Shown here: one piece after another, positions 35,547 through 43,028 of the stretch
Layout of the letters: each line of letters begins with the position of its first letter
Position numbering within the stretch: the first letter of the stretch is position 1
Assembly: GCA_003221985.1 (NCBI GenBank)
Contig: QHUQ01000051.1
Location: 1 to 50,888 of the forward strand
DNA length: 50,888 nucleotides
Reading direction: 5' to 3'
DNA from: Gemmatimonadota bacterium
GTDB lineage: Bacteria; Gemmatimonadota; Gemmatimonadetes; Gemmatimonadales; GWC2-71-9
Notes under the pieces: generated by a model
The model's database searches: none
What the model saw: the letters and a program-made list of their open reading frames with translations, nothing else
What the model was told of the DNA's origin: nothing
Translations under genes and position numbers: made by a program

Positions 35547-38117
35547 TCACTGCAGCCGTTCGTTCAGCCGCTCCAATACCCCCATCAAGTCCGGTTTGAG
35601 CTCCAACAGGGGCAGCACCGGATCGTGCCCGAGCTTCTGCATGCGCTTCAGCGCATTGGCGATCGTGAACTTGCTGTTATGGAGCTTGCCGTTGACTTCG
35701 TCCCACTCGATCGGCATCGACATCGGCGCGCCCGGCGACGGCCGCACGCTGTAGGGCGCGACCATGAGCTGGCCGGCGCGATTCTGGAACGCATCGACGT
35801 ACACTTTGCCCTCGCGTTTGCTGATCGTGCGCTGCGTCGTCGCTAGGTCCGGATGACGATCGGTGACGAGACGGGCGAACAGCATCGCGAGCTGCAAGCA
35901 CTGCGCATACGTGAGCTGCCGGCCAAGGGGCAGCATGATGTGCAGGCCCGACTTGCCGGTTGTCTTGACGAACGCGGGCATGACGACCTCGTCGCACACT
36001 TGCTTCATCGTCTTCGCGAGCACGATCACGTCGGCGAACGGCGCGTCTTTCGGGTCGAGATCGATGAGACACCAGTCGGGCTTCGTGAGATCGGTGATGC
36101 GACTGCCCCAGACGTGCAGCGGGATCGTGCCGAGGTTTACGAGATAGACGAGAGACTCCACGTCATTGCAGACGAAGTAATCGATGTCGCGTTGCGTGTC
36201 CTCGCTCCAGATCGGAATCGTCTGGATCCAGTCGGGCACGAAGCCGGGCGCGTCCTTCTGGTAGAACGATTTGCCGTTGATGCCGTCAGGGTAGCGCGTG
36301 AGCACGACGGGGCGGTCTTTGAGGTACGGCAGCAGCCAGGGCGCTATGCTGCGGTAGTATTCAATCAGGTCGCCCTTGGTGTACTTCTCCTCGGGCCAGA
36401 AGACTTTGTCGAGATTGGAAAGCTTTACTTCGCGATGCGGGATGCGGGATGCGGGATGCGTGACGGACGGTTCAGGTTCTTTCGCATCCCGCATCTCGCT
36501 TCCCGCATCCCGCGTTCCCGGCATTTGGACGTCCTCAGGTTTCTTATCATCCCGAAACCGCACGAACACGGATTGGCGCAGCAGTCCGTCCGGCGTGAAC
36601 TCCTTGTACCGCACGTCGCACACGAGACGCGGCTCGACCCAGTTGTGATCCGGCCCCTTTGGAAGTGCGCCGTGCTCGGGCGGCTCGCACGGCGGCGTCT
36701 CGCGCACCAGTTGGTTCAAGGTGGCGCTGATCTCGTCGAGCTGCGCGCCGCTGAACCCCGAGCCGGCGCGCCCGCAATAGATAAGCTTGCCGTCCTTGTA
36801 GGCGCCGACGTGCAGTGAGCCGAAGCCGCCGCGCGATCCTTTGGGCTTCGAGAACCCGACGACGACGAAGTCGTCGATGCGGTCGGCGCGAATCTTCAGC
36901 CAATCGGCGGAGCGGCCGCTGCGATACGGGCTGTCCGCCTTCTTCGCCATGATGCCTTCGAGTCCCAGCCTCACGACCTGCTCGTACAACGCCTCGCCGT
37001 TCTTCTCGAAGTGCTCGGAGTACCGTAACGGCCCGGTCCGGGGCAGCACCTGCTGGAGAATCTGCTTGCGTTTGACGAGCGGGAGTTTGCGCAGGTCATA
37101 GCCGGCGAACGCCAGCAGGTCGAATACATACAGCGTTGCCGGCGATTCGATGGCCGCGCGTTTCGCTTCGCGGGCGCCCAGCTTGGCACGCACCTGCAGC
37201 TTGTTGAAGCTGGGATGGCCGGATTCGTTCAGCACGACGAGCTCGCCGTCCAGAATCACGCCGTCGAACGGCAGGGCTTTGACCGCGCGCGTGATTTCCG
37301 GAAATGCTTCCGTGTAGTCCAGGCCCTTCCGGGAGTAGAGGATTGCCTCGCCGTCCTGACACGCGGCGCGCATCCGGTACCCGTCGAGCTTCACCTCGAA
37401 CAGCCACCCGTCCTTGCTGAAGGGCTCGGCGCGCGTCTCCGCCAGCATCAACTCTGTGTCTTCCACGCGCAGAGCGCGTTTCGGCGCACCCAGCTTCTCC
37501 AACTCCTGCTTGATCGGCTCGGCGCGCTGTTTGGCATTACGCAGCTCGTCGTTGGTCAGCCCTGAGAGCACCGACTCATCCGAGTACGGCTCGGTCGAGA
37601 CGTACTCATCGCGCTCCTTGATGAGCAGCCATTCTTTCTCGGTCTTCTTGAGCTTGATCAGCGTCCAGCGGCCGTGCAGCTTGTAGCCTCGCAGCTCGAA
37701 CAGCAGCTTCCCTTTAGCGAATCCTGCGCGCACGTCCTCGAGCGGGACCCACACCCCGCGGTCCCAGACGATGACCGTTCCGGCGCCGTAGTTTCCTTCC
37801 GGAATGATCCCCTCGAAGTCGCCGTACTCGAGCGGGTGATCTTCGACTTTGACGGCGAGCCGTTTGTCGGCCGGGTTGGCGGAGGGGCCCTTGGGGACCG
37901 CCCAGGATCTGAGTACGCCATCCATCTCGAGCCGCAGGTCCCAATGCAGGCGCGTGGCGTCGTGCATATGAACAATGAACAACCCGCCCGGTTGTGGACC
38001 GGGTTTTGGGACTAGGCCTCCAGGCTCCGGCGTCTCATCGAATGCGCGCTTCGCCCGATAGGTGCTGAGCGAGTCGCCTCCGCCTTCCTCCGGGCGGGGC
38101 TTCCGACGAGTAGGCAT
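35547..38117 (-). CDS. ligD: ATP-dependent DNA ligase LigD (phosphoesterase-ligase-polymerase)
   Basis: 856 residues in the order 3'-phosphoesterase (about 40-160, FIVHMHDATRLHWDLRLEMD, VPKGPS), ATP-dependent ligase (about 220-520, nucleotidyl Lys near 243 in FEVKLDGYR) and primase-polymerase (about 565-850, SNLDKVFWPEEKYTKG, WCLIDLDPKDAP). It fills, cleans and seals ends in non-homologous end joining together with Ku. The linker between ligase and polymerase (about 535-562) is formed by a palindromic repeat. It diverges from ku across 21 bp and probably has a leaderless message. Confidence 0.97.
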   Translation of the reverse strand: MPTRRKPRPEEGGGDSLSTYRAKRAFDETPEPGGLVPKPGPQPGGLFIVHMHDATRLHWDLRLEMDGVLRSWAVPKGPSANPADKRLAVKVEDHPLEYGDFEGIIPEGNYGAGTVIVWDRGVWVPLEDVRAGFAKGKLLFELRGYKLHGRWTLIKLKKTEKEWLLIKERDEYVSTEPYSDESVLSGLTNDELRNAKQRAEPIKQELEKLGAPKRALRVEDTELMLAETRAEPFSKDGWLFEVKLDGYRMRAACQDGEAILYSRKGLDYTEAFPEITRAVKALPFDGVILDGELVVLNESGHPSFNKLQVRAKLGAREAKRAAIESPATLYVFDLLAFAGYDLRKLPLVKRKQILQQVLPRTGPLRYSEHFEKNGEALYEQVVRLGLEGIMAKKADSPYRSGRSADWLKIRADRIDDFVVVGFSKPKGSRGGFGSLHVGAYKDGKLIYCGRAGSGFSGAQLDEISATLNQLVRETPPCEPPEHGALPKGPDHNWVEPRLVCDVRYKEFTPDGLLRQSVFVRFRDDKKPEDVQMPGTRDAGSEMRDAKEPEPSVTHPASRIPHREVKLSNLDKVFWPEEKYTKGDLIEYYRSIAPWLLPYLKDRPVVLTRYPDGINGKSFYQKDAPGFVPDWIQTIPIWSEDTQRDIDYFVCNDVESLVYLVNLGTIPLHVWGSRITDLTKPDWCLIDLDPKDAPFADVIVLAKTMKQVCDEVVMPAFVKTTGKSGLHIMLPLGRQLTYAQCLQLAMLFARLVTDRHPDLATTQRTISKREGKVYVDAFQNRAGQLMVAPYSVRPSPGAPMSMPIEWDEVNGKLHNSKFTIANALKRMQKLGHDPVLPLLELKPDLMGVLERLNERLQ
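36432..36514. repeat. In-frame palindromic repeat within ligD
   Basis: The left arm (36432-36460) is a run of GGGATGC-type units; the right arm (36483-36514) is its near-complement; the loop is about 22 bases. On the ligD strand it encodes TRDAGSEMRDAKE, then THPASRIPHRE, joining the ligase and polymerase domains. The arms keep the reading frame. A degraded relative lies at 44293-44346. Confidence 0.75.
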
Positions 38118-38138
38118 GAGGGCGTATCATACTCCGAT
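38118..38138. promoter_or_regulatory. 21-bp divergent ku/ligD promoter with a shared -10
   Basis: The heptamer TATCATA (38125-38131) contains TATCAT for ku, eight bases before its ATG at 38139, and on the other strand TATGAT for ligD, eight bases before its ATG at 38117. No Shine-Dalgarno sequence fits on either side. Weak -35 candidates lie inside the opposing genes (TTCCGA at 38101-38106 for ku). Confidence 0.55.
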
Positions 38139-38960
38139 ATGGCCGCCCATTCCATCGGTTCCGCCACGGTTTCGTTCGGCCTCGTGTCCGTGCCCGTGCA
38201 GCTGTTCGCTGCCGGCGAGTCGAAGGCCGCGATCTCGTTCAACTGGCTCCATAAGAAGGATGGGGCCCGCCTGAAGCAGCAGTACGTTTGCTCCGCAGAC
38301 GGCGAAAAAGTCGAACGCAGCGACATGATCAAGGGCTACGAGTTCCAGAAGGGGCAGTACGTGACCTTCACGCCCGAGGAGCTCAAGGCGCTCGAAGAGC
38401 GCGCCACCGGCGCGATCGACATCGTGGAGTTTCTGCCCGCCGAGCAGGTGGACCGCATTTATCTCGACCGCACCTATTTCCTGGGACCCGACAAGGGCGG
38501 CGAGCGCGCGTACAAGCTGCTGACGGAGGCGCTCGAGAAGACCAAGCGCGTGGCGATCGGCCAGTATGCCGCGCGCGGCAAGCAATACCTGATCATGGTC
38601 CGTCCGATGGACGGCGGCCTGGTGATGGAGCAGCTGCGCTACGCCGACGAGATCCGCGACATCGCCGAAGTGCCGATTCCCAAGACCGAGGTCAAGAAGC
38701 CCGAGCTCGACCTCGCGATCAAATTGATCGACCAGGCCGCGACCGAGGAATTCCATCCGGAGAAATACAAGGACAACGTGCGCGAGCGGATGCAGGAGCA
38801 GATCGACCGCAAGGTGGAAGGCAAGCAGATCACCGAGGAGCCGGAGGAAGCGCCGAAGACCAGGGTGCTCGACCTGATGCAGGCGCTGAAGCAGAGCCTC
38901 AGTGCTCCGGCGGCGGAGGAGAAGCCGGCCAAGCGCAAAAAAGTCGCGGGCAAGCGCTAA
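38139..38960 (+). CDS. ku: Bacterial Ku, non-homologous end-joining protein
   Basis: 273 residues of the Ku core: SIGSATVSFGLVSVPVQLF, FNWLHKKDGARLKQQYVCSADG, IEIVEF-like IDIVEFLPAEQVDRIY and YFLGPDKGGERAY. The tail is Lys-rich (EKPAKRKKVAGKR), as in Ku proteins with a DNA-binding extension. It binds broken ends and recruits LigD, encoded divergently next to it. Both parts of the repair system are intact by sequence. Confidence 0.96.
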   Translation: MAAHSIGSATVSFGLVSVPVQLFAAGESKAAISFNWLHKKDGARLKQQYVCSADGEKVERSDMIKGYEFQKGQYVTFTPEELKALEERATGAIDIVEFLPAEQVDRIYLDRTYFLGPDKGGERAYKLLTEALEKTKRVAIGQYAARGKQYLIMVRPMDGGLVMEQLRYADEIRDIAEVPIPKTEVKKPELDLAIKLIDQAATEEFHPEKYKDNVRERMQEQIDRKVEGKQITEEPEEAPKTRVLDLMQALKQSLSAPAAEEKPAKRKKVAGKR

Positions 38961-40955: not shown

Positions 40956-41576
40956 ATGGACAACCGCTGCGGCTGGTCAACGTCCAATGAGCAGATGATC
41001 GCGTATCACGACACGGAATGGGGCGTGCCGGTCCATGATGATCGCCAACTCTTTGGCAAGCTGGTGCTCGACGGATTTCAGGCCGGCCTGTCGTGGGCCA
41101 TCATCCTGCGCAAGCGCGACGCGTTCTTGCACGCCTTCGAAGGCTTCGACCCCGACAAGATGGCCCGGTATGACGCGCGACGCGTCGCCAAGATCCTCAG
41201 AGATCCGGGAATCGTTCGCAACAAGCAGAAGGTGAAATCGGCGGTCGGCAACGCGCGCGCCTTCCTGAACATGAAGGACGCGGGCGAGTCATTCGATCGG
41301 TTTCTCTGGCAATTCGTGGGCGGCAAGCCGAAGGTCAACGCCTGGAAGACGCTGAAACGGGTTCCCGCTGAAACCAGGGAATCGATCGCGATGAGTAAGG
41401 CGCTGGTCGAGCGCGGCTTTCGCTTTGTGGGACCGACGATCGTGTACGCGTTCATGCAGGCGGTGGGAATGGTCAACGACCATTTGGTGTCCTGCTTCCG
41501 CTACCCTGTGCTTACTTCGCCCGCTCCAGATACTGGCCCGACCGCGGGTCGACGCGCACCTTCTCGCCCGGGCTGA
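40956..41576 (+). CDS. tag: DNA-3-methyladenine glycosylase I
   Basis: Tag removes 3-methyladenine from alkylated DNA. In 206 residues it has the N-terminal RCGW with a zinc-ligand Cys, YHDTEWGVP, the helix-hairpin-helix core, and the C-terminal NDHLVSCFRY with His and Cys of the zinc snap. TGGTATGCT, an extended -10, ends five bases before the ATG. The last 65 bases, a nonconserved Pro-rich tail, overlap the end of efp. Together with ku and ligD it adds to a repair-rich neighbourhood. Confidence 0.95.
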   Translation: MDNRCGWSTSNEQMIAYHDTEWGVPVHDDRQLFGKLVLDGFQAGLSWAIILRKRDAFLHAFEGFDPDKMARYDARRVAKILRDPGIVRNKQKVKSAVGNARAFLNMKDAGESFDRFLWQFVGGKPKVNAWKTLKRVPAETRESIAMSKALVERGFRFVGPTIVYAFMQAVGMVNDHLVSCFRYPVLTSPAPDTGPTAGRRAPSRPG

Positions 41577-42069
41577 TAAACTCCGGCACCTGCACCGTCA
41601 CACCGTTCGACAGTTTCGCAGGCTTGGTGCTCGCGGTCTTCGTCGCCGTCTTCATCACCGGGGACGTCTCGACGACTTTCAGCTCGATCACCGGCGGCAG
41701 CTCGATGGCGATGGGCCGTCCCTCCAGCCATTCCACCTGCACCACCATTTCCGGCTGCAGCCACGGCGTGTCCTCGCCCACGGCGCGCTCGTCGAGCGTG
41801 AACTGCTCGTAGGTCTGCTGATCCATCACGTGCACGCCGCCGTGATCCTGATAGAGCACCTGCATCTCTTTGGTGTCGAGACGCGCTTCATTGAGGAAGT
41901 CGGTGGCGGCGAGGCGCTGATCGAACGTGTTGCCCGAAACCAGATTGCGAAAGCGCATCTGCACGAACGCGCGCAGGTTGCCCGGAGTCCGATGCGTGAA
42001 ATCCATGACGCGGCACGGCTGGCCGTCGATCATCAACACGTGCCCTTTGCGAATATCTGTGGCTTTCAT
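41512..42069 (-). CDS. efp: Elongation factor P with an atypical loop
   Basis: EF-P relieves ribosome stalling at proline runs. The 185-residue protein has the three-barrel layout, e.g. IRKGHVLMIDGQPCRVMDF and VQVPEFISPGEKVRVDPRSGQYLERAK. The domain I loop reads HRTPGNLRAF: Asn31 stands where E. coli has the modified Lys34, and an Arg follows two residues later. An unmodified or differently modified factor is implied. The message looks leaderless (TATGTT nine bases before the ATG). A CIRCE-type operator overlaps its -35. Confidence 0.94.
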   Translation of the reverse strand: MKATDIRKGHVLMIDGQPCRVMDFTHRTPGNLRAFVQMRFRNLVSGNTFDQRLAATDFLNEARLDTKEMQVLYQDHGGVHVMDQQTYEQFTLDERAVGEDTPWLQPEMVVQVEWLEGRPIAIELPPVIELKVVETSPVMKTATKTASTKPAKLSNGVTVQVPEFISPGEKVRVDPRSGQYLERAK

Positions 42070-42078
42070 AGGAGCGGG

Positions 42079-42106
42079 AACATAAACCGGTCGCCTTAGC
42101 ACTCAA
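42079..42106 (-). promoter_or_regulatory. Predicted efp promoter
   Basis: On the minus strand TTGAGT (42106-42101), 16 bases, TATGTT (42084-42079), then nine bases to the ATG at 42069. The -35 lies inside the CIRCE-type inverted repeat. Confidence 0.55.
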
Positions 42107-42122
42107 AGGGGCCGAGTGCTAT
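42096..42122. promoter_or_regulatory. CIRCE-type operator (HrcA binding site)
   Basis: TTAGCACTC (42096-42104), nine bases, GAGTGCTAT (42114-42122). The CIRCE consensus is TTAGCACTC-N9-GAGTGCTAA, so 17 of 18 arm bases match, with the exact spacer length. It overlaps the -35 of efp and lies just upstream of a possible forward promoter (TTGCCT 42127-42132, 17 bases, TAGCGT 42150-42155) for the 42312 gene. In known cases HrcA represses chaperone genes until heat shock. Confidence 0.85.
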
Positions 42123-42311
42123 CGGCTTGCCTGAGGGGCGGCCGTTTACTAGCGTGAGCAGCCTCACACTCGACTGCTGTGTCGGATTGCAGCTTTCCGT
42201 AGCACCGTGTCCCAACGTTAGCGAACGGTTTCGAGCCTAAGGCTTTGCGTAACAGTCGGATAGATGAGCGGCACCATCTTTGCCTCTCTAAATGCCGTAA
42301 GGGAGGGAAGC

Positions 42312-43028
42312 ATGATCAGGCCTATCATCCATCGTCAGCTGACCCGCGGCGACCTCGCCTGCCTCGTCGACGAGATCGCGCGGATGGATGTCTCCGAAGG
42401 TCGTGAAGCCGACCAGGCGCTGCAGGCCGGCGCGGTCGATATTGTCCTCGATTCCCCCGCGGCCCTCGAAGCGGTACTCGGCCGCGGCGGTGCCCCTGCG
42501 CCGCTCCCCCTGACCCTCCTGTGGTACGTCCCGATTCGCGCCCAACTGCGCAACCGCGGCGTAACCGACATTCTGCTGGCGGACTATGCCGCGACACTCC
42601 CGGTCGTGTTCGCCAGCTCGCATTCTCAGAGCGCCATCGCGCGGGGTGAGAACGGCATGGAGGATTGGTGGCGCTTCGTCGCCGCGCTGCCGCAAGGCAC
42701 CGTTGCCCAAGCCGAGGCCGCCGCTGACGCCGCGGCGCTGGCGCTGTGGTGGGCCGGTTGTTTCCCTGAATGGGTCGAACGTGGCGGCGCGGGACATGGG
42801 ATGGTGCGCGCCTACGTGACGTTCGCCGGCCGGATGCTGGCACTCGCCGCCGATTTGCTCGAGGCATCCGCGCCCGAGGAGGCCGCACTCTGCGCCCGTG
42901 CCGCGGAAGCTCGCACCGAGCTCCATGCCGCCCTTATCGAGGCGCGCGCCGACTACATCGGTGAGGATCCGCACAGCAGCGAAAGCCGCCTCAATCGGTT
43001 CTTGAGGCGGCTTTCGGAAAACAATTGA
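42312..43028 (+). CDS. Protein of unknown function
   Basis: 238 residues, Ala-rich and helical, without signal or membrane segment. Parts such as LTLLWYVPIRAQLRNRGVTDILLADYAA and AGRMLALAADLLEAS look like a folded helical domain, but I recognise no family. The ATG at 42312 follows GGGAGGGAAGC; an in-frame ATG at 42264 lacks a site. The leader may be about 150 bases if the promoter at 42127 is used. A 14-base hairpin lies within its last codons. Confidence 0.75.
   Translation: MIRPIIHRQLTRGDLACLVDEIARMDVSEGREADQALQAGAVDIVLDSPAALEAVLGRGGAPAPLPLTLLWYVPIRAQLRNRGVTDILLADYAATLPVVFASSHSQSAIARGENGMEDWWRFVAALPQGTVAQAEAAADAAALALWWAGCFPEWVERGGAGHGMVRAYVTFAGRMLALAADLLEASAPEEAALCARAAEARTELHAALIEARADYIGEDPHSSESRLNRFLRRLSENN
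42981..43015. terminator. Strong hairpin inside the 3' end of the 42312 coding region
   Basis: A perfect 14-base stem (42981-42994 with 43002-43015) with a seven-base loop lies within codons for SRLNRFLRRLS. No T-run follows on the plus strand (GGAAAACAATTG). On the minus strand the hairpin is preceded by TTTT. It may protect the mRNA end or stop convergent transcription. Confidence 0.6.

What the first reader, a model, noticed from the sequence alone, without database searches (positions are those of the whole stretch)
42096..42122. CIRCE operator over the efp promoter: a heat-shock repressor site controlling EF-P?
The inverted repeat TTAGCACTC-N9-GAGTGCTAT matches the CIRCE consensus at 17 of 18 arm positions with the exact spacer. 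The putative efp -35 (42106-42101) lies inside it, so HrcA binding would block efp. CIRCE is known at groESL, dnaK and hrcA operons; none of these genes is in the window. A forward promoter for the unknown 42312 gene lies within 30 bases and could be the true or a second target. Linking proline-stall relief to the chaperone regulon would be new to me.
Basis: partly seen in the sequence, partly recalled or inferred. Interest (0 to 1): 0.8.

Follow-up and report, generated by a model that had tools for sequence, protein, structure and literature searches.

The report
Heat-shock repressor site controlling EF-P
In one genus of soil Gemmatimonadota, the gene for the translation factor EF-P carries a DNA switch of the kind that usually controls heat-shock chaperones, suggesting that these bacteria make EF-P and the GroEL chaperone under the same repressor.

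Summary
42096-42122 is a CIRCE operator (17 of 18 arm positions, N9 spacer; 0 hits in 100 shuffles), 27-53 nt upstream of the efp start codon; one arm overlaps the inferred -35 box. The window's own genome is not held, so relatives decide. In its genus, CIRCE sits at -53 from the efp ATG in 8 of 8 genomes with an intact efp start; a ninth lacks the start region, a tenth has no efp found. An hrcA match was found in 7 of 9 genus genomes searched. In 102 family genomes, 94 CIRCE-like sites (up to 3 mismatches) fall into 83 at groESL, 8 at efp (this genus only) and 3 elsewhere. The closest efp locus outside the genus (L010) has the promoter without CIRCE, so the operator probably arose on an existing -35 box. 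Best reading: HrcA represses efp alongside groESL; heat or chaperonin overload releases both. Binding and heat induction are inferred, not shown. The divergent 42312 gene as target is not supported. My paper searches found no HrcA control of efp in print.

The parts
42096..42122 (.). CIRCE operator (HrcA site), arms 42096-42104 and 42114-42122, 9-nt spacer
   Evidence: 17 of 18 consensus positions, 0 in 100 shuffles; same site at -53 of the efp ATG in 8 related loci
42101..42106 (-). efp -35 box TTGAGT, inside the CIRCE arm and spacer (inferred)
   Evidence: 16 nt upstream of the -10; the sister locus L010 has TTGACC-16-TATGTT; 14 of 37 non-genus rows have TTG(A/C)(C/T)(C/T)-16-TAT(C/G)TT
42079..42084 (-). 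efp -10 box TATGTT; 9 nt lie between it and the ATG, so the mRNA is probably leaderless or nearly so (inferred)
41512..42069 (-). efp, elongation factor P (185 aa), the regulated gene
   Evidence: TIGR00038 211 bits, three EF-P Pfam domains
42153..42168 (.). CRP-like palindrome CGTGAGCAGCCTCACA, possible second (activator) site for efp
   Evidence: in the window and the 8 CIRCE-bearing efp loci at up to 2 mismatches, not in L009 or L010; a 31-bp length difference in L003, L006, L007 moves it by about 3 helical turns
42312..43028 (+). divergent neighbour, orphan protein of 238 aa; probably not the CIRCE target
   Evidence: no Pfam match; listed homologues that bear an organism name are Gemmatimonadales; distance to CIRCE not conserved

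Best explanation
The element is a working HrcA operator for efp. At rest, an HrcA dimer binds CIRCE over the -35 box and keeps RNA polymerase off a short, probably leaderless efp promoter, giving reduced basal EF-P. When unfolded protein occupies GroEL, HrcA loses its chaperonin support and releases CIRCE, so groESL and efp rise together. Shown here: the motif, its fixed position and conservation in a genus, its overlap with a promoter seen in relatives, HrcA genes in the genus, and that groESL is the only other clear CIRCE target found in the family. Inferred: HrcA binding, the repression, the GroEL feedback (known from other bacteria, recalled) and heat induction of EF-P.
For: Motif 1 mismatch, 0 of 100 shuffles. 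Same site at -53 from the ATG in 8 of 8 genus loci with an intact efp start, 1-2 mismatches each. Arms vary in 3 of 18 columns against 76 of 155 ungapped intergenic columns upstream, Fisher p = 0.011 (columns treated as independent). In G001-G007 the only other site at up to 3 mismatches is a perfect one at groESL; in G008 no canonical groES was found, only a weak Cpn10 match at E 5e-6. Family: 83 groESL, 8 efp, 3 other of 94 sites. HrcA matches in 7 of 9 genus genomes; G001 HrcA matches structure 1STZ at E 3e-21 and both HrcA Pfam domains. Promoter overlap and comparison with L010. PMC5138195 (passages read) says functional CIRCE in M. [quoted passage not shown]
Against: No expression or binding data. 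The window's own genome is not held. G009 has efp without the site, but its contig also lacks the promoter, start codon and first codons, which looks like an assembly collapse. hrcA was not found in G002 and G003, and is only partial, at contig ends, in G004, G006, G007 and G009. All the relatives are MAGs of one clade, so conservation may reflect one event; the columns between CIRCE and the ATG vary about as little (7 of 26) as the arms. The reversed-pattern control matched 0-2 times per genus genome at up to 3 mismatches, 5 in 10 genomes, so the family count at 3 mismatches includes chance. The efp promoter is weak by consensus: 8 of 12 in the window, 6-7 in L001-L008, and none was reported by the scan.
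Confidence: 0.85

Rival explanations
1. CIRCE controls the divergent 42312 gene, or both genes, rather than efp alone.
For: The gene is divergent and lies next to efp in L001-L010.
Against: CIRCE lies 190 nt from the 42312 start; a 31-bp length difference changes that distance (gene to efp ATG 210-244 nt in L001-L008) while the distance to efp is fixed at -53. No forward promoter near CIRCE was found. L010 keeps the gene without CIRCE.
Confidence: 0.07
2. The site binds HrcA but hardly alters efp: a weak operator that modulates an otherwise CRP-driven promoter.
For: The arms have 1-2 mismatches, those at groESL in the same genomes none; a CRP-like site lies just upstream.
Against: Overlap with the -35 box leaves little room for RNA polymerase and HrcA together (inference); the arms vary less than the upstream region.
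Confidence: 0.12
3. Chance or decaying inverted repeat without function.
For: All eight relatives belong to one genus, so shared ancestry explains part of the identity; columns between CIRCE and the ATG vary about as little as the arms.
Against: 0 in 100 shuffles of the window; genus members at 79-84% nucleotide identity to the window keep it; arms less variable than the upstream region.
Confidence: 0.03

Closest known systems
CIRCE/HrcA control of groESL
   Same: Same 9-9-9 operator and repressor family, present in the same genomes at groESL.
   Different: At groESL the site follows the likely -10 box of a TTGACA-type promoter (read by eye); at efp one arm lies on the -35 box and the target is a translation factor, not a chaperone.
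CIRCE at hrcA-grpE-dnaK-dnaJ and rpoH (Geobacter; PMC545781, passages read)
   Same: Shows that HrcA regulons can hold members beyond groESL.
   Different: In this genus the hrcA loci with readable upstream DNA (L112, L113, L114, L116, L117) show no CIRCE at up to 5 mismatches, one 6-mismatch stretch in L116; in G001 hrcA lies between a radical-SAM HemN/HemW-like gene and dnaJ. The extra member is efp.
CIRCE at lon and clpB in Spiroplasma melliferum (PMC5138195, passages read)
   Same: Lineage-specific members of an HrcA regulon.
   Different: Those are a protease and a disaggregase; EF-P acts on the ribosome.

Membership tests
CIRCE element (HrcA operator) | TTAGCACTC-N9-GAGTGCTAA with at most about two mismatches | tested here: met
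   1 mismatch in the window; 1-2 in 8 relatives
CIRCE element (HrcA operator) | Lies at a promoter, upstream of and near the controlled gene | tested here: met
   27-53 nt upstream of the efp ATG, over the inferred -35
CIRCE element (HrcA operator) | hrcA encoded in the same genome | tested here: inconclusive
   Window genome not held; 7 of 9 genus genomes searched have a match, several partial (G024 not searched)
CIRCE element (HrcA operator) | Bound by HrcA | not testable with these tools
   Needs a binding assay
HrcA heat-shock regulon | Target is derepressed by heat or by loss of HrcA | not testable with these tools
   No expression data
HrcA heat-shock regulon | Typical target is a chaperone or protease operon (typical, not defining of the operator) | tested here: not met
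   The target is efp
CRP-type site (second element) | TGTGA-N6-TCACA palindrome | tested here: met
   9 of 10 specified bases in the window; 8-9 of 10 in L001-L008
CRP-type site (second element) | CRP-family regulator in the genome | tested here: inconclusive
   Strong PF13545 match in 9 of 10 genus genomes, window genome not held; binding not tested

The most novel reading that the evidence does not exclude
In this genus EF-P is a true heat-shock protein: an HrcA regulon that by CIRCE sites is essentially groESL alone in the rest of the family has gained efp, so the load on the GroEL chaperonin directly sets the capacity to relieve proline stalls, with a CRP-type activator adding a second input at the same promoter.
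Probability: 0.55. Interest if true: 0.75.

Novelty: new variant of a known kind. Interest (0 to 1): 0.62.

Why it matters
In the papers I read passages of, HrcA/CIRCE targets are mainly chaperones and proteases. A conserved operator on efp would tie proline-stall relief on the ribosome to protein-folding stress, and asks whether heat makes cells limited for EF-P. The loci also give a before-and-after picture of an operator arising on an existing -35 box (L010 against the genus).

Tried and rejected
Rejected: the 42312 gene as main target (see rivals). Rejected: CIRCE as an mRNA leader element at efp, because the inferred -10 lies downstream of it; an unseen upstream start site would reopen this. 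Led nowhere: own-genome search (none held); Rfam scan of the window (0 matches); consensus promoter scan (0 sites); paper searches for EF-P with heat shock, promoter control or GroEL (listings only, nothing on HrcA control of efp among the rows shown). Of the three non-groESL, non-efp sites in the family, L178 and L203 (3 mismatches, one imperfect arm each) read as chance; L202 (2 mismatches, G077) stays unexplained. The 24 of 102 family genomes without a site were not followed up.

Full report
OBSERVATION. The inverted repeat at 42096-42122 is real: TTAGCACTC-N9-GAGTGCTAT, one mismatch to the CIRCE consensus. It is the only site at up to 3 mismatches in 50.9 kb; none of 100 shuffles gave one. 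On the minus strand, efp (TIGR00038, 211 bits) starts at 42069, so the repeat occupies -53 to -27 of its ATG.

RELATIVES. No whole genome is held for the window. A scan with the EF-P protein found 202 places that encode a relative; the best 80 were kept, most of them labelled Gemmatimonadetes, Gemmatimonadales or the like. Whole-locus scanning at up to 4 mismatches found CIRCE in 8 of 80 (L001-L008), always at -53 from the efp ATG, and nowhere in the other 72. Two of those 72 (L039, L057) have almost no upstream sequence. The eight belong to one genus of 10 held genomes; EF-P was found in 9 of 10, not in G024. The ninth, G009/L009, lacks the promoter, start codon and first codons in its contig, which I take as an assembly fault but cannot prove. 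The window is 79-84% identical in its aligned pieces to L001-L009 within 36-48 kb of the window, so it is probably another species of that genus.

CONSERVATION. In the alignment of the window with L001-L008, 3 of 18 arm columns vary, 4 of 9 spacer columns, and 76 of 155 ungapped intergenic columns upstream of CIRCE (Fisher p = 0.011 for arms against upstream, ignoring relatedness). Against this, the ungapped columns between CIRCE and the ATG also vary little (83 of 181 in all less 76 of 155 upstream = 7 of 26), as a promoter would. L003, L006 and L007 lack a 31-bp stretch right next to CIRCE yet keep CIRCE and its distance to efp.

PROMOTER. The window has TTGAGT-16-TATGTT (42106-42101, 42084-42079), with 9 nt from the -10 to the ATG; L001-L007 read TTGGAG-17-TAAGTT and L008 TTGGAG-17-TATGTT. 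By consensus these are weak: 8 of 12 matches in the window, 6 or 7 in the others; the generic promoter scan of the window reported none. The sister locus L010 (EF-P 92% identical, same divergent neighbour) has TTGACC-16-TATGTT at the same place without CIRCE. Of 37 non-genus rows printed (L010-L046), 14 carry TTG(A/C)(C/T)(C/T)-16-TAT(C/G)TT, 23 do not. The operator therefore seems to have formed on an existing -35 box; loss from the L010 lineage is not excluded. L010 is filed under a Deltaproteobacteria bin, which I read as a binning error from its sequence.

REGULON. In G001-G007 there are two sites at up to 3 mismatches: one perfect, roughly 33-41 nt upstream of groES, and the one at efp. 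G008 has only the efp site; no canonical groES was found in it, only a weak Cpn10 match at E 5e-6. G009 and G024 have only the groESL site. In the family, 78 of 102 genomes have a match. I placed all 94 sites: 83 at groESL, 8 at efp, 3 elsewhere with 2-3 mismatches. The reversed-pattern control at up to 3 mismatches gave 0-2 matches per genus genome (5 in 10 genomes) and up to 5 in others, so a 3-mismatch match alone means little; the efp sites have 1-2. At groESL of these genomes CIRCE follows what looks like the -10 box. HrcA matched in 17 of 22 genomes searched, 7 of 9 in the genus: G001, G005 and G008 over the whole model with open frames of 346-360 aa; G006 cut at a contig end; G004, G007, G009 partial; none in G002 and G003. 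The five genus hrcA loci with readable upstream DNA (L112, L113, L114, L116, L117) show no CIRCE at up to 5 mismatches, and one 6-mismatch stretch in L116. In G001 hrcA sits between a radical-SAM HemN/HemW-like gene and dnaJ. HrcA of G001 matches 1STZ, an HrcA homologue structure (E 3e-21), and both HrcA Pfam domains.

SECOND ELEMENT. A CRP-like palindrome (42153-42168) is found in the window and in L001-L008 at 1-2 mismatches, not in L009 or L010. Its centre lies at -91.5 from the ATG, or -60.5 in the three loci with the 31-bp difference: about three helical turns, close to class I CRP positions known from E. coli (recalled, from no call). Each genus genome has 23-50 such sites at up to 1 mismatch against 6-20 for the reversed pattern, and 9 of 10 have a strong CRP-family match (one sequence). 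Six other efp loci (L025, L028, L030, L031, L032, L037) have a similar site at other distances; the background is 0.057 per 300 bp at up to 2 mismatches.

LITERATURE. Searches for CIRCE and HrcA with 'elongation factor P', 'efp', 'Gemmatimon' and, with 'CIRCE element', 'elongation factor' gave 0, 1, 0 and 3 papers. The one with efp (PMC5595898, passages read) reports EF-P among ribosome-related proteins changing in heat-shocked M. gallisepticum, and names CIRCE only in its references. [quoted passage not shown] PMC4989314 and PMC6843607 do not hold 'elongation factor' in their main text. PMC8762339 holds it twice, not for EF-P, but I did not see its list of 13 putative HrcA targets. Other HrcA regulon papers were seen as listings only. 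Only open-licence PMC papers were searchable and no supplements were read, so 'not in print' is bounded by these searches.

MECHANISM. Shown: motif, position, conservation, promoter overlap, HrcA genes in the genus, and groESL as the other clear CIRCE target. Inferred: that HrcA binds here, that it represses by blocking RNA polymerase at the -35, and that heat or GroEL shortage (feedback known from other bacteria, recalled) releases efp with groESL. Why EF-P should be needed under folding stress is open; that it keeps proline-rich nascent chains moving when chaperones are short is conjecture.

VERDICT. An authentic, clade-specific CIRCE at efp: known operator, new kind of target. Functional HrcA control of efp 0.85; interest 0.62.

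Noticed in passing
42153-42168; L025, L028, L030, L031, L032, L037 upstream of efp: CRP-like TGTGA-N6-TCAC sites recur at efp promoters in related loci, suggesting a CRP-type input to EF-P synthesis independent of CIRCE.
   Followed up: partly
42067-42084; also L010 and L027: efp probably has a leaderless or nearly leaderless mRNA in this genus (9-10 nt from -10 box to ATG; same in L010 and L027), while the other loci with the same promoter type have 21-81 nt.
   Followed up: no
EF-P tip loop TPGNLRA, within 41512-42069: The EF-P tip loop reads TPGNLRA in 79 of 79 sequences aligned (window and 78 of 80 loci), apparently without the lysine or arginine that is modified in well-studied EF-Ps (recalled).
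   Followed up: no
42312-43028: Orphan protein of 238 aa with 357 homologues at E up to 0.001 among 7998 capped candidates (120 listed; those with an organism name are Gemmatimonadales) and no Pfam family.
   Followed up: partly
35547-38960: Neighbouring divergent LigD and Ku genes, a bacterial non-homologous end-joining pair.
   Followed up: no
L202 position 629 (G077): CIRCE-like site with 2 mismatches that is not at groESL or efp; target unclear.
   Followed up: partly
L142-L148, L150-L156 (G078, G080, G081, G090, G096-G098): Seven family genomes carry two CIRCE-like sites 77-82 bp apart upstream of groES.
   Followed up: partly
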